A stretch of 64,000 bases of DNA from Chloranthus sessilifolius (taxonomy: Eukaryota > Streptophyta > Magnoliopsida > Chloranthales > Chloranthaceae), in the NCBI GenBank assembly GCA_021018995.1, contig CM037595.1, forward strand, positions 91,152,491 through 91,216,490, read 5' to 3'. The notes under the pieces were generated by a model. The model worked only from the letters and a program-made list of their open reading frames with translations, ran no database searches and was not told the origin of the DNA. Both the position numbers and the translations under genes were made by a program. Below, in pieces: positions 12,968-64,000 of the stretch (its first letter is position 1; each line of letters begins with the position of its first letter).

Positions 12968-13591
12968 TCAACACCTTGATTGATCGATCAATCCTCCTCC
13001 TTGATTGATCAATGACCTCATTGATCGATCAATCCCCTCAAAATACTCACAGGTGACAAGGCCAATTGATCGATCAATAGCCTCTATTGATCAATCACCT
13101 CCTCTCATTGATCGATCAATGCTTCAATTGATCGATCAATAGCTCCTTAGTCTTCACACTTGACAGAGGAAAATTGATCGATCACCAACTTAGTTGATCG
13201 ATCAATCTGTCTCATTGATCAATCAATGACCTCATTGATTGATCACCAACCTAAATTTTTAAATTTCCCTCTTCCTGTACTCATTCTTATTTTATACAGA
13301 TTGATCAATCAATGCCCTTATTGATCGATCAATTCATGCCAGTGATCGATCAATACCCTTATTGATCGATCAATTCTTACCATTGATCGATCATTCTTTC
13401 TGTGATCGATCAATCCTCATAATTGATCGATCAATTAGCAAATTGATCGATCAATGCCTCTCGAGCATAGAACTTCCAGACAGATGCCTCCACTATTCCC
13501 ATTTAAGACTTATACGAATTGATCGATCAATGCTCATATTGATCGATCAATGCCTCTCATTGATCGATCAATTAAGTATTGATCGATCAAT
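12968..13591. promoter_or_regulatory. Phased palindrome array A1 (TTGATCGATCAA) in LTR of A
   Basis: About 23 copies or near-copies of TTGATCGATCAA. Starts run 13320, 13342, 13361, 13382, 13403, 13421, 13441 and later 13518, 13538, 13559, 13578, that is every 18-22 bp. Variants such as TTGATTGATCAA and TTGATCAATCAA are transitions at the central CpG. The spacers are unrelated in sequence, so this is not a simple tandem repeat. A protein-binding array is the natural reading; that is inference. Confidence 0.85.
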
Positions 13592-14339
13592 AATGACAGC
13601 TCTCTATCATTAATGGAGGTCTCCCATTTAACTTATTTAAACTCCTTTTTCATTAATGGTTTCTAACCACCTCACACACACACACACCTATACACACATA
13701 TTAGAAGCCTTAATTTCACCCTTCTCAAGTCTAAATGCTCACCTCTAATCGGGCCCTTTCGAGGTCTCAGCAAACGCGATCCGGAGGGTTTTGGATCTGA
13801 CTCTCGGAATTTATCGCCGGTATGACTCAGACATGGAGACTATCGGCTCCGGTTCAGCACGCGGAGACCTCACACATACCTAGACTATATGTGAGCTCGT
13901 CTTGTTGAACTCTCCACACCCTAATTCAGATCGACGCACGACCTCGGGTATCCCTAACCCTGTTTCCTCAAGAACTCACTCAGAACCCAACTTAGCTACA
14001 GATTTTTCAGGTCAAGAAGGAAGAGGAAGATGAAATTTAGGTATGCAATTCTTCTTCCTTCTCTTATAAGCTAAGGAACAGAATATCCTTGATATTTCTG
14101 TTTCCCATGACTTAAGCTCCGGAGTGGAGCACTTACACAGTCTCTACGGCGTAACACGCCGTATCAAAGTCTCTCAAGACTCGGATCTAAACGTGAGTTC
14201 CCACATGAATTCATCCACATGTGGATTAATATTATTTCTTATAATATTAATTTCAAAATTTTAAATATGTCTCGATTTTCATGCCGGGCATGCATATCGA
14301 AACAGTCAGGTTCTTATTCAGAATTTTAGGATTGTTACA

Positions 14340-14375: not shown

Positions 14376-15923
14376 TCAAGGAGGTGTGGTCATGTGGTAG
14401 TGAAAACAAGTAGATGAATATATCATGCGAAAAACAAAAATGCAGGTAGAACAGAATTTGGATGGAAAGCAGAGTAATATAAATACAATTATCAAAACAA
14501 AAGATACAGAGAAGAGTATAGTAAATCGGATGACGAGTAATGGTCGGCCGAGGCGAGTTGGCGGTGTACGGTAGTCGCGAGAGTCCACCGTATGCTGACG
14601 TGCATGAGCAATCATCGGCGTCGACGTGGTGGCATACAAGTGCTGCATGACGAGCTCGTGCATGCCCTCATGGTAATCCAGTCGATGATGAATTTGACGC
14701 TGGAATGCCTCCATCCCATCCAGCCTCTTATGTATACGCCAGTTACCCTCCACAAGCTCACGAAGCATCGCTGCGACGTCCACTGTGGAAGGAGGGGGAT
14801 GCGATGTGGTGGGACGAGGTGGCCGACGTGGTGTGGTGGTGATAGGTCGAGTAGACACCTCTGGCGGAGGTTGCTGATCAAGTGGTGCCTCCCCCTCTCC
14901 AAGTACTCAATCGGTGGGCGCCGCACCCTCCGTAACGGCAGGCTCAACGGGCTCAACGGCTTCCTCCTCTTCCTCTGGTAACCGCCTGACCAGAAGGTTG
15001 TAACTCTTGGTCCAGTCCTTGAGGTGAAATACCTTTGTGTTGTTGACCATCCGTGGCTCACTGGGAGCCAAACTATATGCCTCGCGTAGAGCAACTTATT
15101 ACTTCACCATCGTTGTGATCAGGCGAGCGTAGGGAAGCTGTTTCTTGGCCCCGGTCTTTATTTTGTCCGACATTAGGTCCTTGGCATTTAGGATGCCATC
15201 AATGACCAAATTTGCCACAGAGAACCAGCGGTTCTCAAAGGCAGAAAAGAGTGCCTATTGCACGACGTCAGTCCGTGAGGACTTGTGCAAGAACGGGTTG
15301 AGTGCACACTTGATATAGGTATCAAGCATCCACAACTGGTTAGGTAACTGGGCACGTGTGATGGATTGCCCCTTCCCATGTTGACCTTGGGTCATCTTGG
15401 TGACCACGTCGGGAAAAGGGACGTCTTTAATGTAAGGGGGCCCTAATCCATTGGTTTCAATATAGACCGACGTGCATTGTAGGGCAGCCGCTACATGAAA
15501 TTGGTTAAATTTGTACTCAAACCTGTCAATCGAAGTGACGAGTCGGTATCGGCTATTGCCCCAACGAAGGTTTTGGAAAAACAGCCTCACGATCCGGGGG
15601 CAATAATGATAGTGAAACGGCTCGAGTAGGGGTTTCAACCCGTGCTTTTGAATGTATCCCATGGTCCAAGTCATCTCGGGCCGATCCTCATAAAGCGTAG
15701 AGGCGAATACATATTCGGGGAGGAAGTTTTTGGAAGTCCACCATGGGTTGGGGACTTCGCGTTGAATTTGGGTCGGTATGGTCTCTTGGACGGGTGGAAC
15801 CACGTCCGCAACGGGTGCCACGGGTGGCACGATAGGTTGGGGAACGGGTTCGGGGGTTGGTACCGAAGCCCGAACCCGGGACGTCGGAAGCTTACGCGAA
15901 GCGCTCTTAGTACAGGGTCCCAT
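14376..15923 (-). pseudogene. Extra ORF (aORF) of chromovirus A, broken
   Basis: By comparison with B and C the start is ATG at 15923 (M-G-P-C-T-K-S-A-S-R-K-L), just after a non-homologous upstream extension of the frame. Order: basic N-terminus, Pro/Val-rich linker, core domain with W-W-T-S-K-N-F, P-R-I-V-R-L-F-F-Q-N and L-W-M-L-D-T-Y-I-K, then after a stop at 15255 the frame continues with A-L-F-S-A-F-E-N-R-W-F and P-Y-A-R-L-I. More stops lie near 15100 and 14910. The last piece (14376-14858) holds Pro-rich sequence and a heptad-like segment (M-L-R-E-L-V to M-Q-H-L-Y), a likely coiled coil. The core resembles domains catalogued as putative plant transposon protein; function is unknown. It is in the same orientation as gag-pol, between chromodomain and polypurine tract. 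Confidence 0.75.
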
Positions 15924-16086: not shown

Positions 16087-16401
16087 TTGATCGATCAACC
16101 TCTCGCGCCTCACAAATGAGCATTTAAAAAACCCAAACGCCACTTAAAACCTCAAGATTGATCGATCAATGCTTTTATTGATCGATCAATGGCGAAGCTA
16201 AAAGCCCTAACCCGATAACATTGATCGATCACTAACTTACTGTTGATCGATCAATGACACATGTATTGATCAATAAATACCCTTATTGAGATTAATACCT
16301 TTATTGATCGATCAATCAACAAAACTGAACATGAGGCTTCACCTATCATTGATCGATCACCTCAATATGTTGATCGATCAATCATTAAATTGATCGATCA
16401 A
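16087..16401. promoter_or_regulatory. Phased palindrome array A2 upstream of aORF A
   Basis: TTGATCGATCAA-type palindromes start at 16087, 16158, 16178, 16221, 16243, 16304, 16349, 16370 and 16390, plus a degenerate copy near 16265. Within groups the steps are 20, 22, 21 and 20 bp. The array lies between the end of the chromodomain (16601) and the start codon of the extra ORF (15923), so about 160-480 bp upstream of that start. The motif is the same as in this element's LTR. Confidence 0.85.
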
Positions 16402-16600
16402 TTAAGACCATGAAACAACTTCTTAACGCATTCATTTCCCTAATGCGATTAGACCGCACTTCGAAAGTGAGGGTATATGTACCTCACATACAGAACTCGC
16501 AATAGCATATTACACGAGTCAAATGATGCTTGCTTATACATGAGAAACACACAATTATGATGATGAATTTTAAGCGAAATTCATAAAATTACCTCTCAAG

Positions 16601-17990
16601 TCAGGTAAACAAGTGTAGATACTGCTTCCGAATCTCGGTTGTCCGCTCCCAAGTAGCTTCGAAAGATGAATGATTTCTCCACTTCACGAGTACTAGTGGA
16701 ATCAACTTGGTCAGCAAAACTTGATCTCTATGATCCAAAATCGCGATCGATTCCTCAATCACCGTCAGGTCCTCTTGCAACTCAATCGGCTGAAAATCCA
16801 AGACGTGAGTCGGGTCGCGCACATATCATCGTAGCATGGAAACATGAAAAATGTTATGCATGCTCGCCAACTGCGGTGGCAAAGCAATCCGATACATGAC
16901 TTCGCCAACCCATCTGAGTACCTCAAAGGGGCCGAAATATCGAGGACTCAACTTCCCTCGCTTCCCGAAGCACATAACGCCCTTGGTTGGCGAGATCTTC
17001 ACAAAGACCTTATCGTCGACCAGAAAACAGTGGTTAATTCCATAGCTAATAATTTTAACTAGGAAATAGTAAATTCCTCGAACGCATTTAAGTATACCTG
17101 AAACTCGATGTGCGTTCAATGGAGATCGGCATAGCTCTTTTGGTGACTTTAAGCAACCCTCAATCTTTCGCGGATCAACCGAACTATCCCGGTTACACTG
17201 TCCACGATATCAGGTCCCAAAACAAGCTTCTCACCGACTTCTTTCCAATTCAAAGGAGATCTGCATCGTCGTCCATACAAGGCTTCATAAGGTGTCATTC
17301 CAATACTCGACTGATAGTTGTTATTGTAAGAGAACTCGATCAAAGGTAAATGCTGATCCCATGAACCATGAAAGTCCAACATGCACGCAGCATATCCTCT
17401 ATGATCTGGTTCACTCTCTCAGTTTGCCCATCTGTCTGAGGATGAAACGTTGAGCTGAACTCCAGTCTAGAACCCATGCCTTCTTGAATTCATCGCCAGA
17501 ATTGCGACGTATAGAGCGGATCTCTATCACACATGATGCTGACCGGTATGTCATGTAACCGAACTATCTCCTTCATGTACAACTCTGCAAGCTTATTGGC
17601 TGTATACGTAGTCCGGTACGACAGAAAATGTGCAGACTTTGTCAATCTATCCACAATGACCCAGATGGCATTGTTCTTTCTCAATGTGCTCGCCAATCCC
17701 AAAATAAAATTCATAGAAATGGCTTCCCATTTCCACTTTGGCACTGGTAATGGTTGTAATAACTCTGCTGGATTCTGATGGTCTACTTTCACTTGCTGGC
17801 AGACCAAACATCAAGAAATATAATTCGCAACATCTTTCTTCAGTCCTCTCCACCAAAAACTCCGCTTGAGATCTTGATATATCTTGGTACTCTCAGGATG
17901 TATAGCATACGTCGATTTGTGTGCCTCTTTCAAAATCGTATCCTTCAGATCCTTATTATCAGGTATGCACATCCGATCTCTAAATAGCAA
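16601..17990 (-). pseudogene. Chromovirus A pol: integrase and chromodomain
   Basis: Minus-strand pieces give, in order, a zinc-finger segment (H-K-S-T-Y-A-I-H-P then C-L-V-C), the DDE core, the G-K-L-S-P-R-Y-F-G-P-F block and the chromodomain (I-L-D-H-R-D-Q-V-L, V-K-W-R-N-H, A-T-W-E-R-T). In the DDE core the first acidic residue is replaced: I-S-M-N-F-I-L-G-L has N where the family has D. The second Asp (C-D-R-D-P) and the Glu block (T-D-G-Q-T-E-R-V-N) are present. Frame breaks lie near 17488, 17383, 17120 and 16823. The enzyme would insert cDNA in the nucleus; the chromodomain would steer it to marked chromatin. This copy is dead. Confidence 0.85.
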
Positions 17991-21615: not shown

Positions 21616-22929
21616 CAGTGACAACCCGAATTTATGTGCTCGAAAATCCGTGCCATCAGGATCATACTCTGGATGATCCCCAGGACAAATCATAGAGTGT
21701 CTGCTCGTCTAGCTGAAATCAGAACAGAAACTGTCCAGCAGTGATAGATCGAGTCATCATATATGGCTTTAAAAGAGAGAAAAAATAAACAATACATGTA
21801 TATATATATATATCAAAAGAATATACATCCTAAAAAAGGAACCAAGAAGAGCCATTGGTGATGGACATCTATCACCCAAACAATGGTTCTTAATAGTGGT
21901 TCCTATAGAATATATAATAAAACATGTAAAACATCTATAAAAAAATAAATACAGAAAGTGGCAACCAGGTACACAATAATCCAGAGTATCATACAAAAAT
22001 CTCCAAAATAATGATAAACTAGTACCCCGACAGCTAATAGAACTCGTCAGCTGGGGTATCAGTATCCTCCTCCTCAGCCTCTGGATCAGGCTGGTAGTCA
22101 GGGTCGCTCTCGGTACCGGGAGCTCTAGCCTCAGAACCTATAATTGTTATAGAAAATAAGGCAAGCTAACCATCTAAGCTCAGTAGCAGAATTTCAGTTA
22201 AAATTGCATCTTAATTGTAAAACATGGTTGCAGAAGATATTGACAGAATTGAATAGATGCAAGCAGATGTTTCAGATATGTAGAATTTATCAAACAGGCA
22301 GATCTTATTAGAGTTTTCAGAATGTTATGTATATAGTGTTTAATGACTTAGAATAGTAAACTTAAGTAACTCCCGTGAGTATAGCACGTGGTAGCCAGAT
22401 TTGGTCCTATGGGTAATCCCGACCATCGTCGTTCACATGAACAATTTCAGGAATGCAACAATGCCTCAACTATGAAGTGCAATTGTGCCGAGGATTTCCA
22501 AGTAGATGCACGATTGTGCCAGACACGGATATACCGCCGAGTCGGTGAGATTCGTCAGATTATGAAACCTCAAATCACATGCAGACATATTATACATAAC
22601 GGAAATCAGGTGGCAGGTGACAAGTGTCAGATAGCAAGAGTCAGATATAATAGAGTTGTCACACATATGCCAAACATGATTGGAAAGTAAAATCAGACTA
22701 TGCAGTCGAATGCAGAAAATTTGAAACCCATGAGATCAAGAATAAATGCAATTTCAGTTGAATTCTCCTACCTCAGGTCAGACCTTTCTAAGCAAATCTA
22801 AAGCTTTTCTGAACGTCAGGGTCTGATTCTAGACCATAGTACACTAGGTGTCAGGTATGTCAGACCATTAACTGGCACTGTGTCCAACAGCTTTAAATTT
22901 ACAAATTCCATACAGGTCAAAAACAGGGG

Positions 22930-23051
22930 TGATTGGTCGATCAACACCTTGATTTATCGATCAATCCTCCTCCTTGATCGATCAATGACCTCATTGATCA
23001 ATCAATCCCCTCCAAATACTCACAAGTGACAAGTCCAATTGATCGATCAAT
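22930..23051. promoter_or_regulatory. Remaining palindromes of A in its right LTR
   Basis: Five TTGATCGATCAA-type copies remain, several with transitions (TTGGTCGATCAA, TTTATCGATCAA, TTGATCAATCAA). They correspond to the first copies at 12970-13075 of the left LTR. Element B inserted in this array, immediately after a palindrome ending at 23049. Confidence 0.8.
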
Positions 23052-23053
23052 AG

Positions 23054-25627
23054 TGTGACAGCCCGGATTTTGGCACCCCGAAACCCGTGCCATCAGCATG
23101 ATCATCTTGACCGTGCCCCTTAGCTAAGCACAGAACACTGGTATATCAAGCATTGCAATAAAATAATAAACGAAATTGCGGAATTTGAATCTATATTAAT
23201 TAACTCTCCAAAAGACAGTTCTACCCTCATGCCTCTACATGAATGGAGAACCGATCCGAACCATCGATGATAGCAATCATCACGGATGGTTCGCCCCAAA
23301 AATAATCCCATCTATATATATACATGGTTTAAACAGAATCAAGGCTTGACATACCAAGCCGTACAAAAACTCTCTCCAAAATCCCTCAAAGTGGCACAAC
23401 GGAGTCCTCTAGAAGAAGTCCTCTGGAGGTGGCTCCAACTCTTCATGGGATCGGCGTCTCCAAGCCTCTGCTAGTAGTGGACTGCGACGATAGTCTATAG
23501 GGTGAGGTCCATCCTAGCTCAATTGGGAACAAACAGAGTTGAACATATAAATTATGACTCACATATATTCCATGATATGTCATGCATGATGTGTCTATGC
23601 AATTATTGATGAAGCTTAAAAGCATTTCGTTTCTGTTGATTACTTATGTTTTCATTTACTCATGAATAATGAGAAGGCCTAAAGCAAAACTTAAACTTTC
23701 AACTTAAGTAATCCCAGCAATATAGCATCGAGCCCCGATGAGATACCCATCATCGCCATCTATATAGATTTTAACCGTATTCCTGAATACAAAGTAGTAC
23801 CAAGCCCCTTTCACGGGATTGGTGGCGGGTTTCACTTGTCTCAATCAACACCCACGGGTGTGCTTACTATGTACGGATAAGCCTCCGCACTGGCCTACGG
23901 TTTCGCCGCCGTATCGGTCACGGATATCCTGCCGTGTCAGTCGTGGATATCCCGCCACGTCGGTGGGGTACCCTATCAAACCTCAAATAATAAAAATATC
24001 GGTGCCTTACATATAGTTATTCACCGTGTAAATGTGCTATCTTATATCAGTTAGGCCCTATCAAACATGATCCAATCCTTGGATACATCCCTGGGATGTA
24101 TCCATTTACTTGCATCACACCTGATGCTCTTATCTCTTTACTTCTTCATCCCCTGGGATGGCTCATTATGATTACTGTTATGGATGTCACACACACACAC
24201 TTTTCACAAATTCTTAAGAAATAATATTTGAATTGAATTCTATATCACTACATACATGCTCTTGTAAAATAAAGTACATGTTCAAGGTGTTCCCTACCTC
24301 AAGTCTTCATTTGATCAATGCATCAAGGTCCCACGTGGCTCCTTGTGCACTAGTCCACACGTACCACCTATGGTACCATATAACAGGTGAAACACATCAC
24401 AAAGGATGCAATAAAGAAGGTGTAAGACCCTCTAAGAATCTTAAAGTCAAACCCAAAAGTCAACACAATTCATCTCAGTCGATTAATCGAATTCCAAAAT
24501 CGATTAATCGAATCTGGTTCGATTAATCGATTTCCAAAATCGATTAATCGAAGGTCAATATCGATTAATCGAAATTCTCCTTTTCGCAAAGTCGATCCTC
24601 AATTCGAACAGTCAAGTTTTCATTCGATTAATCGAATCCAATTTCGATTAATCGAAATTCTTCTTTTCGCAAAGTAGACTCACGTAATAATGAAGTTTTC
24701 ATTCGACATCAATCCAATTTCGATTAATCGAAATTCTTCTTCGCAAAGTCGACTCTCGCCTCAATAAATGAGTTTCACAAGTTGATTAATCGATTCCAAA
24801 TCGATTAATCGAAAACTAAAATCGATTAATCGAAATCCCATTTCGATTAGTCGATTTTTCCTTAAGTCATTTCCTCAACCCCTGGGGTCCACTGGAGGTT
24901 CTCAGTCGATTAATCGATCCCCAAATCGATTAATCGAAATCCAAAGTCGACTAATCGAAATCAAATTCGATTAATCGAAATCGGGGTCCTCTGACCTTTC
25001 AACTTCCTGGCCAATTTCGATTAATCGAAACCCAATTTCGATTAATCGAAATTGTCAGATTCAGCCCCTCTCGAGCTGTTCTTCCCAATCTTCTTCCATA
25101 CTTTTTGTTCTATTTTTCTAGACCATTATCCTATACTTTAGCCCACTTTCAACCACAACTTAACCCCTATAATCTATGCATTTTAATTACAAAAATCTTA
25201 CCTTGAATAGATCTCAAGTTGATTTCAATCAAATAGTTGGAAGGCTAGGGTTTCGATTTTGGCTCTAATAGATCCAAATCGGGCTTTTATCTCTTGAACC
25301 CCCCCCTCCAATCAGTTGCAATAACTCCTCTCTTACTTCTCTCTCTTTCTCTCTCTTCTTTACTCTCCTTCAACAACCAAAATACACCTCTAGGGTTATT
25401 AAACCCTTTTATCCTCTTTTCTCACTTGTGTGTTGAGCACATATACCGCGGTAGGTATATGCGACCTCACTTTTACAACACACACCACATAGACATTAAG
25501 TTTATCACATCTCATCCGTTCATCACACCTCATGCTAACTATTGGACTTCCGTTTGGTCAAACCTATGACCGATCGGGCACGGATCCCGAGGTCATAGTT
25601 TTAGCGTGATTTTTTCGAGCTATTACA
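23054..25627 (-). repeat. Chromovirus B, 3' LTR
   Basis: A 2574-bp LTR, TGTGACAGCCC to TATTACA, followed by TCCTCCCC and GGGAATTTTCATCCCCG, the polypurine-tract neighbourhood also seen in A and C. Internally it has palindrome array B1 and, near 25270-25400, a CT-rich tract. The LTR is clearly related to that of A at its first 20 bp but diverged elsewhere. Confidence 0.85.
24479..25049. promoter_or_regulatory. Phased palindrome array B1 (TCGATTAATCGA) in LTR of B
   Basis: About 18 copies, usually extended to TTCGATTAATCGAA. Starts: 24479, 24500, 24519, 24540, 24561; 24624, 24644; 24720; 24782, 24801, 24822, 24843; 24906, 24926, 24947, 24967; 25017, 25038. Steps inside groups are 19-21 bp. Variants (TTGATTAATCGA, TCGACTAATCGA, TCGATTAGTCGA) are single transitions. 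Confidence 0.9.
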
Positions 25628-25891: not shown

Positions 25892-27404
25892 TCAAAATGC
25901 AAAATACGGCTGGAGTGGCTGGGCTTGGTGGTGGACTGTCTTTGGTGAGCGGTGGTCAGGGCTGTGGTGTCTCTGTCGGCGGAGCAGATGTGGAAGGAGC
26001 CATGTCTGTGGTGGGATGGAAGACGGGTCCTCGATGGAAGGCGGTGCGTCCGGCCGTCCACTCCTCCTCCTGGGCGAGGTAGCGGCGGTAGTCGGGTAGA
26101 TGTGGCGGAGGGTGTGAAATAGGAGGAAGTCTATCCTCCGGTTCATCCTCTCATTGTTGGCCTCCATGCGAGCCAACACGTCCTCGATGGTAGGACCGGG
26201 TGGAGCGGCGCGCCGGCGGTAGGATGAGGTGGGTGTCGCGGGCGCGGGAGTAAGGTGTGGCGCTTGGTGAGGTCAGTGGTGTGGAGGGAACCCTCCACGG
26301 ATGGCTCTGGGAATAGGGTGTGCCACACCCACTGGGGTTATCGCCGAGGTGGTGGGGTGGTGGCGGTCACTGCCGCTGCCGGGCTGCGCTAGGCGGGAGC
26401 GGGACCCGAGCCGGTAGGGTCCGCTTTAGAAGGTTGTAGCTACGGGTCCATGAAGACTTTGTAAATGTCTTCACGCGATCCGTAGCCCTCACCTCGTGAG
26501 GTGAGATGGTGTAGGAGGGCTCGTCGGAGTAGCACTCCAACATGCTCGATATAAGACGAGCATAGGGCATCTTTTCTTTGGGCCTCATGTTGCCCTTCAT
26601 CAACTTGCCCTTGATGTATTTCATCCCCTCTAGGATGACCATCGTGGCGTCGAACCACCGGCCACAGAAGGCCGCATAAAGTGCATGTTGCACTTTGTCC
26701 ACGCGTTCGGTGTCGTGGCGCATCGGGTAGAGGTTGCACTTGATTATGGAATCAAGCATCCACATGTAGGGTGGAAGGTCAACCCTCTTAATCGATGATC
26801 CCGACCCCTTCTTCCCGTTGGTCATGCGGGTCATGACCTCCTCAAAACGGGGTTCCTCCTCAAAGGGTGGGAAAAGAGTGGTCTCCGGGGTGAAATCGAG
26901 GTAACACTCGATTACCTCGTGGATGTGGCGACGAGTGATCGTATAGAGACGACCCTCAATTTTGGTTATGATGCAATCGTCGGTAGGGCCATCGGTTAGC
27001 CCTTGGTAAAAGAGTCTAACCAATCTAGGGTAGTATGAACCCCGGATTGGTTTTAGAAGGTTGCCGAGTCCGGCGTTGGTGAGGTAATTTCGAGCCCATT
27101 GGGTCTCGCCCGGTAAATCGGGATTGGTGAAAAGGGTAGGGTCTATAATATATTCGACCTCAAAGGTCTTTGCCGTCCACCATTCATTTGGTTGTTCAAC
27201 ATTGGTGGGTGGTGGTGGCATGGGGGTGGACTCGCGGGAAGACTCGCGCGTAGACGCGCTCGTCGAACCGGAGGTGGTCTCCGATTCCGACGGTGATGGG
27301 GTCCTCACCGGCGATGGGGTAGGTGGTGGTGGCGCGGCGTTCTTACGCCTAACCGGTAGCTTGGAGGTTGCCTTCTTCGAAGACAATCGGGTTTTGGGCG
27401 GCAT
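25892..27404 (-). pseudogene. Extra ORF (aORF) of chromovirus B, best preserved
   Basis: The first frame (27404-26367) is open for 345 codons. Residues 1-25 are basic (K-K-A-T-S-K-L-P-V-R-R-K), nuclear-signal-like; 25-70 are Pro/Ser/Thr-rich; from about 75 comes the core domain (E-W-W-T-A-K-T-F, P-R-L-V-R-L-F-Y-Q-G, M-W-M-L-D-S-I-I-K, F-C-G-R-W-F, P-Y-A-R-L-I-S-S-M). After a frame break around 26360 the C-terminal part continues in another frame (26179-25892) with E-D-V-L-A-R-M-E-A-N-N-E-R-M-N-R-R-I, a coiled-coil-like segment. Homologous to the ORFs at 14376-15923 and 43029-44431. It has no RT, integrase or known enzyme motif. Role unknown; the layout suggests a nuclear, dimerising protein. 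Confidence 0.8.
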
Positions 27405-27629
27405 TTTGAGAAAATCTAGGGTTTTCTAGTTCAACTTGAAGGGAAAAACACAAATCTAAGGTTTACCTTAGGTGTCGATGTGAAAATGGGGGTGAATCGC
27501 CGAAAAAATCCAAACCCTAGGGCACCGGCTTGTCGGAGAAGAGGAAGAAGGTGAAACGCCAAAAACCCGAAGCAAGAAAAATTTCGAATGGGGAATAAAA
27601 TCCCCAATCTTATATATATAGCCCGCGGC

Positions 27630-28274
27630 TCGATTAATCGAAATTCAGAATCGATTAATCGAGATTTCAAACTAAGTTAAGCCGCGTAAAATCGATTAAT
27701 CGATTTCCCAAATCGATTAATCGAAAGTCAAATTCGATTAATCGAAACCATTTCGATTAATCGAAATCGTATCTATTTAAAACTTTAAATTTTTAAGCTC
27801 ACTGGCGCGAGCCAGTCGATTAATCAAAATCCATTTCGATTAATCGAAATTCCAAAATCGATTAATCGAATTTAATTTCGATTAATCGAAATCGTGCTGT
27901 AACTTCTAAATTTCCAGAATTTCTTAAATTATTCGATTAATCGAATCCATTTTGATTAATCGAAATTTCAAAATCGATTAATCGAAATCCACTTCGATTA
28001 ATCGAAATCGTCCATTTGATTTCAAATTCTCGTAAGTCCCTTTAATAAATCGATTAATCGAATATAATTCGATTAATCGAAATTTCAAAATCGATTAGTC
28101 GATTCCAAATCGATTAATCGAGATTCCAATTCGATTAATCGAAATTGTCCTTCTATGTATATTCTAACTCTCTTTTAAATTTCCAGTCACTGGCACATGC
28201 CAGTCGACTAATCGAACAAAATCGATTAATCGAAATTCCAAATCGATTAATCGATTTGAAATTCGATTAATCGG
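27630..28274. promoter_or_regulatory. Phased palindrome array B2 upstream of aORF B
   Basis: About 23 copies of TCGATTAATCGA. Starts: 27630, 27651, 27692, 27713, 27734, 27753; 27816, 27836, 27858, 27878; 27933, 27952, 27974, 27994; 28050, 28069, 28091, 28110, 28131; 28204, 28222, 28243, 28263. Steps are 18-22 bp, with one double step of 41. It lies between the chromodomain remnant and the aORF start (27404). Confidence 0.9.
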
Positions 28275-28499
28275 TTTTGCCCAATTTCTTCAGAATTCCA
28301 ATCTCTTTATTTCTTTGATTTCTTTTGGTAGTTTATGACATCAAGTGATCCATAGTTCCATAAAAATACATACACTTGGTCATATATATACAAGAAAGAA
28401 ATACTCCTTTCATCATACAATCGAGCAAATTTTTTTTTTTTTTTCCATCGAATCACAAGGATCGTGGAGATTCCACGAACACGTTCGTGGTTTACATTG

Positions 28500-28735
28500 A
28501 ATCCTCACGTCGTTTGAAACAAGGCTGGATATTGTTCTTTCACATCGGCCTCTCTTTCCCAAGTAGCCTCTTCTTTTGGATGATTGTTCCACCGAACAAG
28601 CACTAAGGGAATCACTTTAGTGCGCAGTACTTGTTCCTTTCAATCCAAGATTTCCACTGGTTCCTCTATCATGCTCATGTCCTCACACATCTCTATAGGT
28701 TGCTTTCCTAATACATGGGACGGATCGTTCAAGTG
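28500..28735 (-). pseudogene. Chromovirus B chromodomain remnant
   Basis: Minus-strand translation gives D-P-S-H-V-L, P-I-E-M-C-E-D, E-E-P-V-E-I-L-D, an in-frame stop, K-E-Q-V-L-R-T-K, V-L-V-R-W-N-N-H and E-A-T-W-E-R-E, the standard end of Tekay/Del-like pol. It is cut at 28735 by the deletion junction with the A LTR. Confidence 0.8.
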
Positions 28736-29348
28736 TAAATGCTCACCTCTAATTAGGCCCTTTCGAGGTCTCGGCAAGCGCGATCCGGAGGGTTTCGGAT
28801 CCGACTCTCGGAGTTTATCACCGGTATGACTCAGACAAGGAGACTATCGGCGCCGGTTCAGCATGCAGAGACCTTACACATACCTAGACTATATGTGAGC
28901 TCGTCTTATTGAACTCTCCTCACCCTAATTCAGATTGACGCACGACCTCGGGTATCCCTAACCCTGTTTCCTCAAGAACTCACTCAGAACCCAACTTAGC
29001 TACAGATTTTTCAGGTCAAGAAGGAAGAGGAAGATGAAATTTAGGTATGCAACTCTTCTTCCTTCTCTTATAAGCTAAGGAACAGAATATCCTTGATATT
29101 TTTATTTCCCATGACTTAAGTTCCGGTGTGGAGCACCTACACGGTCTCTACGGTGTAACACGCCGTATCAACGTCTCTCAAGACTCGGCTCTAAACGTGA
29201 ATTCCCATGTGAATTCATCCACATGTGGATTAATATTATTTCTTATAATATTAATTTCAAATTTTTAAACATGTCTCGATTTTTGTGTCGGGCACACATA
29301 TCGAAACAGTTAGGTTCTTATTCAGAATTTTAGGGTCGTTACAACTCT

Positions 29349-36990: not shown

Positions 36991-37013
36991 GCATCGATTA
37001 TATCATCTTTAAT

Positions 37014-42403: not shown

Positions 42404-43028
42404 TTCTCCCCTCATTAGGAATTTTCGTCCTTGAAAATGTAATGCAACTCACATCATAAAATGAAACGAAAAGGAAAACATGTGTCACCATGCGCTGGTC
42501 CCACAGGGCACGCAAGTCAAGTGATAGGATCCCTAGTAACCTGGATGTACTGCATGTGGCACCCGAAGGGCCATAGTGGATTGCATCCATACATGGATGC
42601 CTACACCCCAAGTGTCACGTGCCGGGAAACCGTCGCATGGTGAGTCATGAAAACAACCAAGATAACATGATCCGACCATAGCAAAATAGAAACAGAAGAT
42701 GACAAACAAAACCCATATATATAGAGCAAAAACAATTATCTCATGTACTCATGAGAGTACATGTCCACATAATAAAAGCCAAAATGCAAAACAAAGCCAA
42801 AGAGAATTAGGAGTTAAATGTAAAAACCCACATATAAATTAGAGGTAACAAGGTCTATAGCAAATATATACAAGACGAAGCAAAACAAACTATCAGATCA
42901 AAAGCCCAAAACCAGAATATAAAAGAGATAACAAAAGTAGGACTACCAGGTCCTAAGATAATCCATGCATGAAATATAAATACATGCCCCAAAAGATAAA
43001 AGATAACAACACAACCCTCAGAGCAACA
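42404..43028 (-). other. 3' untranslated part of C
   Basis: Begins with the polypurine-tract complement and GAATTTTCGTCCTTG. From about 42480 to 42650 there is GC-richer sequence with GCATCCATACATGGATGC, an 18-bp interrupted palindrome. No coding content. Confidence 0.5.
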
Positions 43029-44431
43029 CTAAAACTCCCCCGCTGCAGATGGACCAGCCTGATCCTGATCACCATCCCCATCATCATCATCGCCATCATC
43101 ACCATCACCATCATCTGCACCAACAACACCCTCATCGGTAGGCATGCTGGGACCTGCTCCGGATGTCGAAGGGTGGTGAACAGATGCTCGGATGTCGGCC
43201 ATGTACGCGCTATAATCGGTGAGGAATGCATGTTACATGAGGTACGTTAGAGCCCTGCCATGTATCTGCAACTTGTGGCTCATAGAGCAGGTATGTTGTG
43301 CGAGCTCCTGGATCTGCTGGCTCACAGTAGTCATCTGACGTATAAACTCCGAAAGCGTGGGCATGTCACTCTGTGGGGGCTGAGCGGGTGCAGGAGCAGC
43401 AGTCTCTGGGGCAACATGCGTCGGATCCTTGTCCTCATATTCCTCATTGGGAACTACCGCGTCCTTGGGAGTCTTAACAACTCTACTGTAGGGCTGACCC
43501 CAATTGACAAGTTTATACAGTTTAAGACCGTCAGTAGATTTCGGTTCTGTAGGGGGAATATCATAAGCTGGGCCCGCTCGATAAATCTCTATCATAACGG
43601 AAATCAAACGAGCATAGGGAATGCCCTTTTTCGGCTTCTTGACTTGCTTCTCCATTTTCTCCCGGGCTTTAATAATTCCCTTCAAAATAATTTCAGGGGC
43701 ACTAAACCAACGCTCTTTGTAAGCGGCAAAGAGAATTTGCCGGAGGGGACCGATACGCTCATATTTGTGACCAAACGGTAGAGGGTTGCCTTGAATATTT
43801 TGTCCAAAAGCCACATGGAGTCGGGCATGTGTGAACGGACAATAGATTTACCCGACCCATGATGACCTTGGGTCATTTGGGTAATAACCTCTTGAAAAGG
43901 GGCAGGTTTAGGGAAAGGAGGACCCAATCCCATAGTCTTAGAATGTGCCATAGGGCAACGCATTGCCACGGCAATGTCCTCTAGGTCAAATGTATAATCC
44001 CGTCCATCAGTCGAAGTATAAATTTTCTTACCATCCTCGTGGCGCATATGTTGATAAAATAAGCGCACTAAACGGGGATAGAAGTGATCACTAAAGGTCA
44101 TACACAACGAAGTTAATTGGGCTTTTTCTAAATATTCCGCCGTCGACTGAGTGGTTGTTTGTTGATCAAACAACTCAGGGTGAAATACATACTCAGTGGC
44201 GAAGCCCTTTATGCCCCAAAATTTGTTGGGTTGTTCCCGGATTGGAGGGGACACTGGTGGTGGAATCGGCTGTGGGGGTCGTGGAGCCGACTGTGAAGGT
44301 GGCTGAGCCGACTGTGAAGGTGGCTGATCGGGCTGTGGGGCTGCTTGTTTAGATCGGCTTGAAGACGCAACCTTTGAAGCTGGTCGTTTAGAGGTAGGAT
44401 TCTAGATGGGAGCTTGCTTTTTGGATGCCAT
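43029..44431 (-). pseudogene. Extra ORF (aORF) of chromovirus C with acidic tail
   Basis: Start ATG 44431 (M-A-S-K-K-Q), basic N-terminus, Gln/Pro/Ser-rich repeats (Q-P-P-S-Q-S-A), core domain (N-K-F-W-G-I-K-G-F, P-R-L-V-R-L-F-Y-Q-H, M-W-L-L-D-K-I-F-K, Y-K-E-R-W-F, P-Y-A-R-L-I-S-V-M), Ala/Pro linker, coiled-coil-like helix (I-R-Q-M-T-T-V-S-Q-Q-I-Q-E-L). Breaks: a stop near 44403, a frameshift near 43780 and a TAA at 43233. The frame after that TAA continues (H-A-F-L-T-D-Y-S-A-Y-M-A-D) into an Asp/Gly-rich acidic tail encoded by GAT repeats (43074-43115) and stops at 43029. Homologous to the ORFs of A and B; an acidic tail is compatible with transcription activation but that is inference. Confidence 0.75.
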
Positions 44432-44708
44432 AGTTAAAAAAAACAAGAGAGAACAAAAATATGCAGAAATATGTACTGTAATCCTCAAAATAGAGGGTTT
44501 ACCTCTGGAGAAAAGTCCCAAATCCGTTTTCTAGTTGTGCAACCCAAGGCCCGTGCACTTAGCAGTTGAATCCCCTCTGATTTCAGCCAAAAATTTGGAA
44601 AAGAAGCCTCAAAAATCCGAAAACCCCTAAGAACCCTAAGCCCTAACCTCTGTTTTCAAAGCACGAAATGGCAAACCCAAAACAGACCCCCCATTTAAAC
44701 CGACAAAA

Positions 44709-44833
44709 TCGACCATCGATTTTGAAATCGACCCTCGAATTGTCTAAAATGTTGCCAGGCCAAAATTTTTGCCTAAATTGCCTGGTTACTATTCATGGAA
44801 AATCGACCCTCGATTTTCATTTTCAACCCTCGA
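44709..44833. promoter_or_regulatory. Phased dyads C2 upstream of aORF C
   Basis: TCGACCATCGA at 44709 and TCGACCCTCGA at 44729 are 20 bp apart; TCGACCCTCGA at 44803 and the variant TCAACCCTCGA at 44823 are again 20 bp apart. Core is TCGA-N3-TCGA as in the LTR of C. They lie about 280-400 bp upstream of the aORF start and downstream of the chromodomain. Confidence 0.8.
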
Positions 44834-45239
44834 TTTTGTCGAGTTCTGTTTTTGCTCAAAATTTCAAAATTTTGAAAATGAGGGTCCATTCCTTGGGTCC
44901 AAATCGACCTCCTTAGAGCCCAGTTCAGTGTAAGTATGGCACCCGACTGTGCTGTGACTAATAACGCCGAAATTAACCTATAAATTAACTGAAAAAGGCC
45001 AACAAAAGGCCCGTTTTAAATTACAAGTACAATAGGGAGTTAAAAGCCCCAATTTCGGGTTTGAATCTCCAAAATATATCGGTTTACATATACTAGGGAC
45101 CTTTCAACAGGCAGCAAATTTAATATTTAAAGGATCGCAAAATATAATTTGTTATATTTATATAACAAGTACATGATCGAAAGGGCAAAAATACAGTCCA
45201 CACACAAAATCCCAAAAATCTAAACAAAAAGGGTCGGGA

Positions 45240-55906: not shown

Positions 55907-55959
55907 TCACAAACAGGGATTGAAGAATCCAAAATAAATCCATAAAATAGGCTCAATCG

Positions 55960-56229
55960 ATTGCAGCAAAGATCTCAATCAATTGACAGAAGCACACTTA
56001 AAATTTCACAGAAATGACTTTATCAGTCAATCGATTGAAGAACTGTTCTCAATCGATTGAGGTTCAAAGGTCAAAGCAAGTTAACACAAGAATTTCAGCC
56101 GAAATGGCAAGCACATAATTTTTGTCAATCGATTGACAGAGGAATGTCAATCGATTGAAAGAAAAGCAAAGATCACGACAGAGAATATTTCAGTCTCAAT
56201 CGATTGAACCTGAAGCTTCAATCGATTGA
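55960..56229. promoter_or_regulatory. Paired TCAATCGATTGA palindromes between gag and 5' LTR of E
   Basis: Perfect 12-bp palindromes start at 56027/56049, 56125/56147 and 56196/56218: three pairs, each exactly 22 bp apart. Diverged copies lie near 55961-55980. The segment is not found in the other LTR of E, and it occupies the place where U5 and the primer site should be. Confidence 0.85.
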
Positions 56230-56230
56230 G

Positions 56231-57493: not shown

Positions 57494-57498
57494 GCACC

Positions 57499-59728: not shown

Positions 59729-59729
59729 C

Positions 59730-61770
59730 TGTGACGACCCATCTTTTCCAATCCCTAAGGTATAGGTAAGGCCGGTTCATCAACTTATTGATTTCTCAAT
59801 AAGCCGTAACAAACAGAAGCCGGCAACATAACAAAGATCTAAAAACAGAGGCAAAGCATAGAATAAGCAAAGACAAAAGTTTTTAACAAAAAAAAAATAT
59901 ATCACTCTGAGGAACCAGAAAGAACCACGGGTGATGGCCAATCCAACACCTAAAATAGTGGTTCCCAATAATGGTTCCTCGTGTGATATTAAAAGGACAA
60001 AACAAAGGCCTAAGGCCCATTATTCAAAGAATATTCTACCAAAAGTACCAAAAAGAAGTGATCTAGAATCAAGGGAAAAACTTCTCAGCAGGTGTATCTA
60101 ATTCCTCCTCAGGAATGTAATCGGAGTCCTCCAGATCCTCTGACCCTAGGTCAGTCTCAACACCTGTGACATATAGTTGAGGGTGAGCTAACAACAAAGC
60201 CCAATAGAGGAAAACAAGTCTATTTGCATTTCATTATAAGTAAAGGTTTTTCAAAGACAGAAATTGAATCAAGTATGGTTTTCCAATGATGCTTTGCAAA
60301 CTAAATCTCCAGTTCTAATTATGAGTCAAAACTGATAACATTAATTTGATGTGTTCAAAAACTTCTGAATTAGCATGCTTCTTGTCTTAAATTTATAACT
60401 TAATTTTATCTCCCAAATTCCCTATATCATGAGAGCGGACTACGTGACCGATGGGAAACTCTACTGACCATCGTCATTCATGAACTCATTTTCTAAACAA
60501 CAACAAGCCCCTACGCTATGAGGGAAACTTGCGCCAAAACAAACACCGTCCACACGGTTGGTAGAATCTAGGGCATCGTTCGTATGTACCTCAAATCGAA
60601 TGCAAATGCTAACTTATATCAAAGCTTATTATTCATAACATATTACTGATTTTTCGGAGTTCTGATTCGATGTTCACATTCAAAAATAACTGAGGTTCTG
60701 AGGTTCAAATTTCACAGTTCTTAATCATAACAAAGTTCCCAAATTTCTAATTTGTATCTTAATTTCCAGATTCTTATTCATGCTGTGTTCAAACTAATAT
60801 TTCCAAAACTTAAGCCCCTTATCAAAATATTTAAAACAATCCCTACTTATAATAGAATGCAAATAATGTGTAGGTTTCCCCTACCTCAACAAAGACGGTT
60901 CAAAAAATAGCATAAGCAGTCCTCACAAAGGACTCCCAATATTCAAAACCTACAAAGATTAACACTCTCAGTGTTAATATTGGACCAAAAGTCAAACCCT
61001 AAAGCTTGCCAAGAAAAATTCGACAAAAATTTCGAAGGCCTGAAACAGGGCAAAATTTGACCCTCGAATTCAAATTCGATGGTCGAATTCAAATTCGACC
61101 CTCGAATTTCAAAATTCGCATCAGGCTTGAAAATCAGAAAATCGACCCTCGAATTCCTTCAGGTCTGTGTTTGTCAAAATTTCATCTCTAGACTCTTTTC
61201 TTTCTTATTCAACCACAGCCTGTGTAACTAAAATTTACACCAGTTTTCTACTCTAATCAAAACATAAATTCAAAAAACATAAGGAGGTTTAAAAAGCCTA
61301 CCTCTTGTCATTTAATCCCTTGTTCCCGTTGCACCAAATCACGCACCGGAACCAAGCATGAAGGCTTAATTAGACCAGTGCTTCCTAATTAGTCCATCAT
61401 AAACCTTTCTCTATTGCACAGATCTGATCCACACAGTGACATCCTCTCCCCTATCCTTCTCTTCCAATAGCCCAAACAGATCAGAATTCAAGCACAATTC
61501 TAATCAATGGTTGAGATGGGGAGAGGAATTTCAAAACTCACAAGATCTAGGATCAAGATGAGGCAAGGCTTATAATCTTGTAAAATCGAACGACAGAGAG
61601 AAGGTACACTTCTCTTTAAAATCTCTCTCTTATAATACAAAACAAAGTTAACTAAAAATCTAGATATTTCTAATTACATCTTATCTACTTAACTTGAATT
61701 TAATTTCGGCGTGAAACACAAATATTCTACTTATTGTGTAAGTCATCGAAACCATGACTTCCACACATCA
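59730..61770 (-). repeat. Chromovirus C, 5' LTR (right), broken by D
   Basis: Matches the left LTR from its first base (TGTGACGACCC) to the position equal to about 42271 (ACTTCCACACATCA), where D begins. The remaining about 130 bp of the LTR are expected beyond the window. Confidence 0.9.
61056..61153. promoter_or_regulatory. Phased dyads C1 in right LTR of C
   Basis: TTTGACCCTCGAA (61056), TTCGATGGTCGAA (61075) and TTCGACCCTCGAA (61094) are 19 bp apart, with ATCGACCCTCGAA at 61141. The second copy is a perfect TTCGA-N3-TCGAA here, while the left LTR has TTCGTGGGTCGAA. Confidence 0.85.
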
Positions 61771-64000
61771 TGTGACGACCCGACTTTTCCAATCCCTCAG
61801 GTATAGGAAAGGCCGGTTCGCCAACCTATCGAATAAACGATAAGCCGGACAAACAGGGCACATATCAGAGTAAAGTGCAATAAATATCCATAGCTAAAAT
61901 AAATACAGAAGCAATTAAAAGTGAAGAACCACCGATGATGGCCGACCATCATCGAAACATGGCTCATAACAGAGATCAACGTCAAGTATAAAACTATGAT
62001 ATCCAACTAAAATGGGCCCACAAATTCAAGTCTAACTCTCACCACCAATAAGAAAATCAGTAAGTTCTATACTGGGAAAAACTCTTCAGGAGGAACCTCA
62101 AGCTCTTCCTCAGGCACGTAGTCAGGATCAGTCTCACAACCCTGAATAGCCACGTCAATACCTGAACCTGTGACGTATAGTCGGAGTGAGCTAACCAACA
62201 AAGCTCAGTAGAAGAAAGACATCTACGGCATTTTACTTTAACTAACATGGTTTCAAAACAAATATCGGAATATAGCTTGTCAAACATATAAGCAGATAAT
62301 AAACTGAATTTAGGTGCGGAAATCATATGTAAGATTTATTTCTAAATGTGTGAAAACTGTTTCAAGAACAGATGCAGTATTTCAGTGCCTTAGTTTCTCT
62401 AACTTCTATATGCAAATTTCAGTAATTCATGACTTAATCATCAACTTAAAATACCTCCCGAGTAAACTATATCTCAAGAGCAGGAATATAGCCGATGGGA
62501 ACCCCTACCTACCATCGTCGTTCATGAACCCTTTTTCAGGATGCAACAAGCCCCTGCGTAATGAGGGAAACTTATGCCAGGAAGTTGTTCAGGAATTTTT
62601 GAGGGGTCGTTCAGGTCAATCATAAAACAAATGCAGATACTAATATAAATTAGATGTAAGTCTCTTATACATAGTTCAGGTTCTTGATTTCAGATTTTCA
62701 GAGGTTAAGCAGATTCAGGTAGATTTAGATTTTCAATCATTCATATCAATTTCAGTTCACAAATGTGATGTCAATGGCATATGCAAGTTCAAAGATTTTA
62801 ATTCAAAATATCCATGCGAATTAAAATAAAATACTGTAAAGATGAGATTCTCCTACCTAAAACTCGGAGTTATGCGAAGTCAAGCAAGGTCCTATTGATG
62901 GCCTCTCGCCCTCAATCTACATCACAATATACGTTCATGCATTAAGATTAACTCTAATTACTAATAATATAGACCTATTTAAGTGTTTCCTTAAAAACAA
63001 GTCAAAATAGGCAAGTTGCGCCAATCCTAGAATTTGATGTAACATTCTCATATATTTTTTACTATCAAGACGATTGAGCCACGAGTTGGTTAAAACATAA
63101 ACGTTGTAGATTTTTCTATTAGCTTTCCAACGTAAAATGAATCGTCTCAATCGGAGTTCGAGATAAAAAGTTATGACTAAAATACTAAGACAATATCGGA
63201 GTTCGGTGATACCTCGCTCGAGCGATGATAATAGCTCGCTCGAGCGAGATCCTTCAGAACCTTCTCGCTCGAGCGATGACAAAAGCTCGCTCGAGCGAGG
63301 GCAGGGAACGCCTTTTCGAGTATTTTAGTGTATCCTCGCTCGAGCGATGATAATAGCTCGCTCGAGTGAGCTCCAGCGACGCGATTTCGCTCGTTTTCAC
63401 CCGAATCGAAACCCATACATCTCAAAGCAAAACCCATGGCTAATCTAATAATTTTAATCAAAAAGTTTAATTAAAACGTACCTTTAATCTAAGGATTCCT
63501 AGATTATAAATGAATCTAGCGAATGGAGCTTCGAAACGAAACCGACGGGTTTCCTCGACAATTCGCGCCGCGATCGATCCCACGAGTTCACAGAGACAAC
63601 TCCAACACGTCCCCAATGATCTCAACCTCTCCCAATAGCCAACTACGAATTCAAGGTTGATTCAAGTTCTTTCTAAGGTTCAAGTGTTTTCAACAAAGAG
63701 GGTTCTAGAGAAGGAGGTTTTCTAAACCGATCTCCTACGATGATTGAAGAAGAGAGAAGACAGAGTTTCACACGGTTGGGTAACTATCGAACGACTACGG
63801 TTCTTCACGGCACTCACGTCTCTTCCTCTCTTAACAAAACCTAGTATAATACGGGAATGCAATTCCTTCTTATAATAGGATTGCTCACAAAGTTAAGCAC
63901 ACACACACACACACCTCTTATGTATTATACACTTTTAATTTTAAAACTCAAGCCCGGTGTTGAGCTGCCACACCGAGGTCAGTGCACAACTTTCGCACGA
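61771..64000 (-). repeat. Chromovirus D LTR, cut by window end
   Basis: Starts TGTGACGACCCGACTTTTCC, like LTRs of C and the solo LTR, but diverges after about 60 bp. It keeps the conserved LTR block (CCGATGGGAACCC near 62491, CAACAAGCCCCTGCG near 62545). CATCA at 61766-61770 would be its target duplication. At least 2230 bp long; its internal region is outside the window. Confidence 0.8.
63213..63370. promoter_or_regulatory. Paired CTCGCTCGAGCGAG palindromes in LTR of D
   Basis: Six copies in three pairs start at 63213/63235, 63264/63286 and 63335/63357: each pair is exactly 22 bp apart and pair-to-pair steps are 51 and 71 bp. Within a pair the left copy ends GCGAT and the right is the full 14-bp palindrome. 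The last copy has GAGTGAG, one transition. Confidence 0.9.

What the first reader, a model, noticed from the sequence alone, without database searches (positions are those of the whole stretch)
12968..63370. Each chromovirus family carries its own palindrome, phased at about two DNA turns
Four related LTR families (A, B, C, D) show different palindromic words, TTGATCGATCAA, TTCGATTAATCGAA, TTCGA-N3-TCGAA and CTCGCTCGAGCGAG, yet the same geometry: copies 18-22 bp apart with unrelated spacers, in the same LTR region. Words differ but spacing is kept, which points to selection on arrangement, as expected for dimers binding side by side on one face of the helix. All words contain CpG, so binding could be methylation-sensitive. 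I know of no described plant LTR system of this kind; that is from memory only.
Basis: partly seen in the sequence, partly recalled or inferred. Interest (0 to 1): 0.93.

Follow-up and report, generated by a model that had tools for sequence, protein, structure and literature searches.

The report
Palindrome arrays in retrotransposon promoters
Several related plant jumping genes each carry their own short palindromic DNA word, repeated about every 20 letters both in their main promoter region and just in front of an extra gene of their own, which suggests a private switch read by that gene's protein; a similar layout is known from another group of plant jumping genes.

Summary
The palindrome arrays are real and far beyond chance. 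In chromoviruses A and B the word stands at about 20.3 bp spacing, often in clusters of four; C has 19-20 bp pairs and D 22 bp pairs. These three ORFs are homologous (36-40% aa; best Pfam match PF20167). With words masked, LTR and ORF-upstream arrays of A and B share nothing else. A fifth word lies in nested element E. Corrections: clusters were partly copied by tandem duplication, spacers share a strand bias, and the A, B, D, E words are variants of one half-site. The layout has precedents: Sirevirus (Ty1/copia) 'RM boxes' are family-specific palindromes in the LTR and upstream of an env-like ORF, and VANDAL transposons pair a protein with family-specific repeats. Best reading: a dimeric regulator, most likely the ORF product, reads the arrays at both promoters. 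Binding was not tested, and no other copies could be examined because no plant genome was reachable.

The parts
11978..14339 (-). Element A, 3' LTR
   Evidence: BLAST self-match to 21964-23053 and 28729-29343
12959..13591 (.). A LTR array: 24 sites of TTGATCGATCAA (<=2 mismatches) in clusters of 4, 4, 4, 8 and 4; spacing 19-21 bp within clusters
14910..15923 (-). A ORF3: extra ORF between integrase/chromodomain and 3' LTR, broken; pieces 15258-15923, 15102-15254, 14910-15095
16087..16402 (.). A array upstream of ORF3: 10 sites of the same word (<=2 mismatches), clusters of 1, 2, 3, 1 and 3
16604..16825 (-). A chromodomain (PF00385, E=3.6e-5, 24.0 bits, cut-off 25.1)
21964..23053 (-). A 5' LTR, downstream part; 5 sites of the A word at about 22932-23050
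28729..29343 (-). A 5' LTR, upstream part, separated from the rest by nested B; no match to 13081-13724 in this copy
23054..25627 (-). Element B LTR; ends read by eye (TGTGACAG... to ...TATTACA). Scripts used 23055-25645.
24478..25050 (.). B LTR array: 18 sites of TCGATTAATCGA, clusters of 5, 2, 1, 4, 4 and 2
26370..27404 (-). B ORF3: uninterrupted 345-aa frame; PF20167 E=1.8e-8, 34.9 bits, below the curated cut-off 45
27609..27620 (-). TATA-like stretch about 10 bp downstream of the B ORF-upstream array; consensus match only
   Evidence: extent by eye
27629..28275 (.). B array upstream of ORF3: 23 sites of the same word, clusters of 2, 4, 4, 4, 5 and 4
28508..28639 (-). B chromodomain (PF00385, E=1.3e-6, 28.7 bits, above cut-off)
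40207..42404 (-). Element C, 3' LTR
41531..41654 (.). C LTR words: 2 exact TCGA-N3-TCGA cores plus degraded copies
43236..44431 (-). C ORF3: broken extra ORF (pieces 43685-44401 and 43236-43847; an ATG at 44431 is cut off by a stop)
44708..44835 (.). C words upstream of ORF3: 3 exact TCGA-N3-TCGA cores plus a degraded copy; spacings 19, 75 and 20 bp
59729..61776 (-). Element C, 5' LTR, cut by D at about 61771
61055..61154 (.). C 5' LTR words: 3 exact cores, two of them 19 bp apart
61771..64000 (-). Element D LTR, cut by the window end; orientation from its match to the C and F LTR ends
63213..63370 (.). D array: 6 sites of CTCGCTCGAGCGAG in three pairs 22 bp apart, near-identical spacers
55953..56229 (.). 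Fifth word, TCAATCGATTGA: 8 sites in four pairs 22 bp apart, between the end of E's 5' LTR match and E's gag

Best explanation
These are family-private cis-regulatory arrays of plant Ty3/gypsy elements, placed at two promoters of one element: the LTR, and the region in front of an extra downstream gene (ORF3). A dimeric DNA-binding protein reads each palindrome, and copies two helical turns apart let several dimers line up. The likeliest reader is the ORF3 product itself, acting on its own gene and on the LTR, probably to raise transcription or to keep silencing off that element family, as VANC proteins do for VANDAL transposons. Word and protein would diverge together, so each family recognises only itself. 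Shown here: words, spacing, family restriction, double location, homology of the three ORFs, and loss of all other similarity between A's and between B's two arrays when words are masked. Inferred: binding, the identity of the binder, that the ORF-upstream region is a promoter, the sign of the effect, and co-evolution.
For: Double location: of A-word sites (<=1 mismatch) 36 of 37 lie in A's LTR copies (27) or upstream of A ORF3; of B-word sites 41 of 43 lie in B's LTR (18) or upstream of B ORF3; of exact C cores 8 of 9 lie in C LTRs (5) or upstream of C ORF3 (3). All three elements with a recognisable ORF3 show it; no ORF3 relic was found elsewhere in the window (tblastn hits outside A, B and C are at E 0.45 or worse). 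With words masked, LTR and ORF-upstream regions of A and B give no BLAST match at E 1e-3, whereas unmasked they match at 2e-14 and 1e-37; C's two regions do not match even unmasked. So word and spacing are what is shared. Word columns are 0.80-1.00 conserved, columns outside the palindrome 0.29-0.62 in A and E and 0.35-0.83 in B. ORF3 differs far more than gag-pol: A v C 36.0% over 308 aa against 68.3% over 652 pooled aa, as expected of a fast-changing recogniser. The N-terminal 30 residues are basic (B 8, A 5, C 7 K/R; at most 1 D/E) and followed by a proline-rich stretch. A TATA-like element starts 9-10 bp below the ORF-upstream array in B and C (not tested against chance). Precedents: PMC2829016, PMC5735166.
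Against: No binding data. Two structure models of ORF3 are unusable (mean pLDDT 42.2 and 45.0), and no relative was found among solved structures (best E=0.77) or in the protein collection, so a DNA-binding fold is not shown. E carries a word array with no ORF3 relic in the window, and F, a C-like LTR, has one word and an 83-bp tandem repeat instead. Sireviruses without an env ORF still carry LTR boxes (PMC2829016), so an LTR array does not need the ORF. TATA-like positions do not fit one promoter scheme: in A's LTR 12 of 24 sites lie downstream of the nearest one, in front of A ORF3 one of 10 does, in C's 3' LTR the array lies downstream of one, and B's LTR has none within 700 bp downstream. 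Only one copy per family was seen, apart from the A and C LTR pairs. Three ORF-bearing elements are too few to test co-evolution.
Confidence: 0.5

Rival explanations
1. A host transcription factor family, not ORF3, binds the palindromes; the elements copied an inducible enhancer to both of their promoters.
For: PMC2829016 matched Sirevirus boxes mainly to stress-factor sites, notes box I of Tnt1 as symmetric, and suggests different nuclear factors as binders. The A, B, D, E half-sites fit one degenerate pattern (T-Y-R-M-T-Y; 8 of 200000 random sets as alike), as one host factor family could also give. Arrays occur in E without ORF3.
Against: Words stay nearly family-exclusive among elements in one genome, although a shared host factor would favour one word. 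Their placement in front of ORF3 in all three ORF-bearing elements would then only reflect a shared need for a promoter.
Confidence: 0.27
2. Hairpins: neighbouring palindromes pair in RNA or single-stranded DNA, and the arrays act through structure (small-RNA source, termination, or recombination).
For: Clusters fold well below letter shuffles (z -4.3 to -8.9 in five stretches). Maize Sirevirus palindromes are small-RNA mapping hotspots (passages of PMC5311732).
Against: Any palindrome array folds, so the energy is not independent evidence. Of 27 word substitutions only 2 are matched in a neighbour so as to keep a hairpin; none is mirrored in its own palindrome either. A hairpin does not require every copy to be a perfect dyad of one family word.
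Confidence: 0.1
3. Mutational by-product: tandem duplication of a 20-bp unit that happens to contain a palindrome, with no function.
For: Larger 83-, 107- and 116-bp repeats overlie the arrays; spacers of the A LTR and both B arrays share a strand bias and D's spacers are near-copies.
Against: Word columns are near-invariant while adjacent spacers are no more alike than shuffled letters. The same word appears at two separate places of one element with no other similarity. Five families share a spacing of 18-23 bp.
Confidence: 0.1

Closest known systems
Sirevirus RM boxes (Bousios et al. 2010, PMC2829016; passages and sections 9, 10, 19 read)
   Same: Palindromic, CpG-holding words, one per family, repeated in the LTR and again upstream of an extra ORF between pol and the 3' LTR; flanks diverge while words are kept. 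Tnd-1's word ACAATCGATTGT shares the 10-bp core CAATCGATTG with element E here.
   Different: Those are Ty1/copia; 12 of 13 have a CGG-CCG core, absent here; the ORF is called env-like. The paper says the boxes are absent from 'classic' elements. In the parts read no regular spacing is described; nuclear factors are suggested as binders, an element-encoded one is not.
VANDAL/VANC anti-silencing system (Hosaka et al. 2017, PMC5735166; abstract, sections 8 and 9 read)
   Same: Element-encoded protein plus family-specific short words in tandem repeats of non-coding regions; words and proteins vary between related families.
   Different: VANDALs are DNA transposons; the VANC21 motif YAGTATTAY is directional, not palindromic, and its binding and the methylation loss are shown by experiment. 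VANC has DUF1985 and DUF287, which were not found in ORF3.
Extra ORFs of plant LTR elements: Athila ORF with PF20167 (PMC11728184), Retand TRP28 with family-specific tandem repeats (PMC11963269), eORF survey (PMC6317226); passages read
   Same: Extra ORF between pol and 3' LTR (Athila, Retand); PF20167 similarity reported for an Athila ORF; nuclear localisation or DNA binding predicted; tandem repeats nearby in Retand.
   Different: The sunflower Tekay ORF in PMC11728184 is 5' of gag-pol, and Retand ORFs are antisense. The passages read do not link the ORF to a palindromic word shared with the LTR.

Membership tests
Chromovirus (Ty3/gypsy) | Ty3-type gag/protease/RT and chromodomain at the integrase C-terminus | tested here: met
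   Chromo: B 28.7 bits (above cut-off 25.1), A 24.0 bits (just under). Gag, RVP_2 protease and RVT_1 in A and C; integrase-end SH3_Tf2-1 in A and C. C's chromodomain stretch was not submitted; B's gag and RT are missing from the truncated copy; D's interior is not in the window.
Tekay lineage of chromoviruses | RT/RH/INT phylogenetic placement | not tested
   No reference set at hand; the Tekay label is by recall.
Sirevirus RM boxes | Family-specific palindromes in the LTR and upstream of the downstream extra ORF | tested here: met
   A, B and C
Sirevirus RM boxes | At least eight copies per element | tested here: inconclusive
   Met by A and B; C has 5-6 exact cores counting one LTR plus the ORF-upstream stretch, and D 6 in a cut LTR
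Sirevirus RM boxes | CGG-CCG core (12 of 13 families) | tested here: not met
   No word here has it
Sirevirus RM boxes | Ty1/copia Sirevirus host element | tested here: not met
   Ty3-type domains and chromodomain
VANC/VANDAL | Element protein binds the repeated word and removes silencing marks | not testable with these tools
   Needs EMSA/DAP-seq and methylation data
VANC/VANDAL | DUF1985/DUF287 in the protein | tested here: not met
   Pfam scan of 6 ORF3 pieces at E up to 10 listed 4 families, neither among them
PF20167 Transposase_32 | Score at or above the curated cut-off (45 bits) | tested here: inconclusive
   B ORF3 34.9 bits, E=1.8e-8; 2 of 6 pieces match at E up to 10

The most novel reading that the evidence does not exclude
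The downstream extra ORFs of plant LTR elements, long called envelope-like, are not envelopes but self-recognition regulators. Each ORF3 protein reads a palindromic word planted in clusters, two helical turns apart, at its own promoter and at the LTR, and keeps silencing off its own family alone. The scheme would then exist in at least three kinds of element (chromoviruses, Sireviruses, VANDAL DNA transposons), reached by convergence or by descent of one protein superfamily.
Probability: 0.28. Interest if true: 0.87.

Novelty: new variant of a known kind. Interest (0 to 1): 0.62.

Why it matters
Extra ORFs downstream of pol in plant LTR elements have no agreed function (PMC6317226 calls it 'rather speculative'). 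A word shared almost only by the LTR and the front of that ORF gives a direct test: does the ORF product bind the word? If so, the 'envelope-like' label would need revision, and sequence-specific anti-silencing could extend to the LTR elements that make up much of plant genomes, with a set of related proteins and words from which to learn a recognition code. If a host factor binds instead, the arrays are still compact, family-specific enhancers.

Tried and rejected
Rejected: pure chance; four independent words (the pattern was chosen after seeing the words, so its figure is indicative; C's gapped word was left out of that test); wholly unrelated spacers; phasing between clusters as a rule; clusters of four as a rule: 10 of the 22 clusters in the four A and B arrays have exactly four sites (counted); recent copying of one whole array into the other place (words-masked BLAST).

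Led nowhere: protein collection searches with B ORF3 (1294 candidates, none at E <= 0.001) and with the ORF3 alignment (7663, none at E <= 0.01); solved-structure search; two structure predictions, too poor for a fold search, which was therefore not run; two pattern scans of viral contigs (0 matches). The phage, plasmid, E. coli and GTDB-contig collections were not searched, because the window is plant-like (a judgement from its elements; the species was not determined). Two papers, on Sirevirus palindromes in maize (PMC4728375) and VANC in eudicots (PMC9016345), are not held; I know the first only from its citation and description in PMC5311732, the second only from a citation. Ten paper searches were answered, on palindromes in LTRs, extra ORFs, PF20167, VANC and DUF1985; each listing showed only the best 6-20 papers. 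No listing or passage that I saw described such arrays in a chromovirus. That does not exclude papers further down or subscription literature.


Full report
What is there. The window holds nested LTR elements; those with word arrays are all judged to lie on the minus strand. A has its 3' LTR at 11978-14339 and its 5' LTR in two parts (21964-23053, 28729-29343) split by a truncated B (LTR about 23054-25627). C has LTRs at 40207-42404 and 59729-61776, with another element (E) nested in its pol. D begins at 61771 and runs off the window. F is a C-like LTR at 9770-11976 (B ends by eye). Ty3-type gag and protease domains and the integrase-end SH3 domain are found in A and C, and chromodomains in A (24.0 bits, just under the cut-off) and B (28.7 bits, above it). 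The chromovirus label therefore stands for A and B, and C is A's relative by gag-pol (68.3% identity over 652 pooled aa). The name Tekay is recalled, not tested.

The words. With at most one mismatch over 12 bp, TTGATCGATCAA occurs 37 times and TCGATTAATCGA 43 times, against means of 0.30 in 20 shuffled windows; the D word occurs 6 times and the E word 8 times (means 0.00 and 0.35). Words are almost strictly private: 36 of 37 A-word sites are in A, the other in E; 41 of 43 B-word sites are in B, the other two in E; 8 of 9 exact C cores are in C, the ninth in F.

Spacing. Inside clusters the mean spacing is 20.32 (sd 0.67, n=19) in the A LTR, 20.42 (0.79, n=12) in the B LTR, 20.29 (1.21, n=17) upstream of B ORF3, 21.2 (1.30, n=5) upstream of A ORF3, and 22 in each of the 3 D and 4 E pairs. 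C has 19 and 20 bp pairs together with spacings of 13, 14, 30, 33, 53 and 75 between degraded copies. Random hard-core placement reaches the observed count of 18-23 bp spacings in 0 of 20000 trials for each of the three large arrays; the small arrays are not decisive alone (A ORF-upstream 642, E 680, D 3412 of 20000). Clusters often hold four sites: 4, 4, 4, 8, 4 in the A LTR and 2, 4, 4, 4, 5, 4 upstream of B ORF3, but 5, 2, 1, 4, 4, 2 in the B LTR and 1, 2, 3, 1, 3 upstream of A ORF3; D and E have pairs. Of 18 gaps between clusters in A and B (38-76 bp), five are near two or three 20-21 bp units; the others, and E's 49, 52 and 76 and D's 29 and 49, are not. Phasing is thus a property of a cluster, not of the LTR.

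Origin of the arrays. Repeats of 83, 107 and 116 bp overlie the arrays, so whole clusters were copied by tandem duplication. At the 20-bp level the evidence is mixed. Adjacent spacers are no more alike than letter-shuffled ones (A LTR 0.52 v 0.50, B LTR 0.50 v 0.53, B ORF-upstream 0.57 v 0.56). Against this, word columns are 0.80-1.00 conserved while columns outside the palindrome are 0.29-0.62 in A and E and 0.35-0.83 in B. In the A LTR, words differ from consensus at 12 of 288 bases, 4.2%; A's two LTRs are 92.7-93.5% identical, about 3.3-3.6% change per copy since insertion. At insertion the 24 words were thus close to perfect although their spacers were already unlike. Duplication alone does not give this; selection for the word, with spacer length held, does. 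11 of the 27 word substitutions in the six arrays counted are CpG transitions.

The missed half of the finding. Each of A, B and C carries an extra ORF between the integrase/chromodomain end and the 3' LTR, in sense orientation. B's is uninterrupted (345 aa, 26370-27404); A's and C's are broken. They are homologous at 36-40% identity, and B's matches Pfam PF20167, 'putative plant transposon protein', at E=1.8e-8 but below the curated cut-off. Directly upstream of each of these ORFs, with the nearest site 164-277 bp from the ATG, stands the same word as in that element's LTR: 10 sites in A, 23 in B, 3 exact cores plus a degraded one in C. LTR and ORF-upstream regions of A and B match by BLAST when whole and not at all when words are masked; C's do not match even unmasked. 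No ORF3 relic was found elsewhere in the window, including E. TATA-like elements start 9-10 bp below the array in front of B ORF3 and C ORF3; in front of A ORF3 one lies about 30 bp below the second-nearest site, with one further site beyond it. In A's LTR one lies inside the array, with 12 sites on either side; C's 3' LTR has one upstream of its array and one about 660 bp downstream; B's LTR shows none within 700 bp downstream (none tested against chance).

The words are related. Aligned at the dyad, the half-sites TTGATC (A), TCGATT (B), TCGCTC (D) and TCAATC (E) agree at 2 of 6 positions and in purine/pyrimidine class at 3 more; 8 of 200000 random sets, or 3 of 50000 when each palindrome must hold CpG, are as alike (the scoring was chosen after seeing the words). 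C's half-site TTCGA equals B's outer half-site with the spacing one base shorter. This fits divergence of one ancestral site, read by diverging homologous proteins or by one host factor family.

How it most likely works. A dimer reads each palindrome; two-turn spacing puts neighbouring dimers on one face of the helix. The same word at the LTR and in front of ORF3 means one protein can act on both. The likeliest reader is ORF3: it is the one internal gene with the word directly in front (no A-word or C-core site lies in the gag-pol parts of A or C), it differs much more than gag-pol (36.0% against 68.3% identity, A against C), and its N-terminus is basic and followed by a proline-rich stretch. 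I favour activation or anti-silencing over autorepression by analogy with VANC, but the sequence does not decide the sign. A host factor is the main rival; hairpins and by-product are weaker (see rivals). The ORF3 structure models have mean pLDDT 42.2 and 45.0 and say nothing.

What is known. Bousios et al. 2010 (PMC2829016; passages and sections 9, 10, 19) describe in 13 Sireviruses family-specific palindromes in the LTR and, in the nine with an env-like ORF, further copies almost all upstream of that ORF (77 of 79); the four without the ORF lack linker copies. This is the same layout in Ty1/copia. Twelve of the 13 words have a CGG-CCG core, absent here; Tnd-1's ACAATCGATTGT is the exception and shares a 10-bp core with E. 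VANDAL elements (PMC5735166; abstract and sections 8, 9) show by experiment a protein-plus-word system with tandem-repeat growth of targets, but with a directional motif and DUF1985/DUF287, which ORF3 lacks in a Pfam scan. PF20167 similarity has been reported in a sunflower Athila ORF (PMC11728184, passages), and Retand elements combine family-specific tandem repeats with an ORF thought to bind DNA (PMC11963269, passages). The case here works like Sirevirus boxes and perhaps like VANC, but is a member of neither. I class it as a new variant of a known kind.

Limits.

Noticed in passing
57104-57139 and 47784-47819: Both LTRs of nested element E carry a pair of palindromes 22 bp apart; in one copy it is GTCGATTAATCGAC and GTCGATGCATCGAC, the first having the same 12-bp core as element B's word (the other copy has one change in it, by eye).
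   Followed up: partly
55953-56241: The E-word stretch abuts the point where E's two LTR copies stop matching (56242), so whether it belongs to a leader, a deleted LTR end or an inserted piece is unclear.
   Followed up: partly
11109-11509: F, an LTR 72-77% identical to C's in matching parts, has an 83-bp tandem repeat (4.9 copies) with ATCGAT-containing units beside its single C-type word: array content may turn over quickly between related LTRs.
   Followed up: partly
11976-11978: A's 3' LTR match begins 2 bp from the end of F's LTR match: either insertion at an LTR edge or a tandem arrangement. A's LTR lacks there the TGTGAC-type end seen in B, C, D and F (by eye).
   Followed up: no
34951-38193: A Ty1/copia element on the minus strand (RVT_2, retroviral SH3, gag-type domains in separate frames); its own LTRs were not delimited.
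   Followed up: no
2888-4156: Plus-strand stretches 67-70% identical to E's protease region (53557-53809, 52544-53012), so part of an E-like element lies at the left end.
   Followed up: no
47872-47967 and 63089-63184: A 96-bp stretch 80% identical in inverted orientation between E's LTR and D's LTR, within about 55 bp of both palindrome sets; possible exchange between element families.
   Followed up: no
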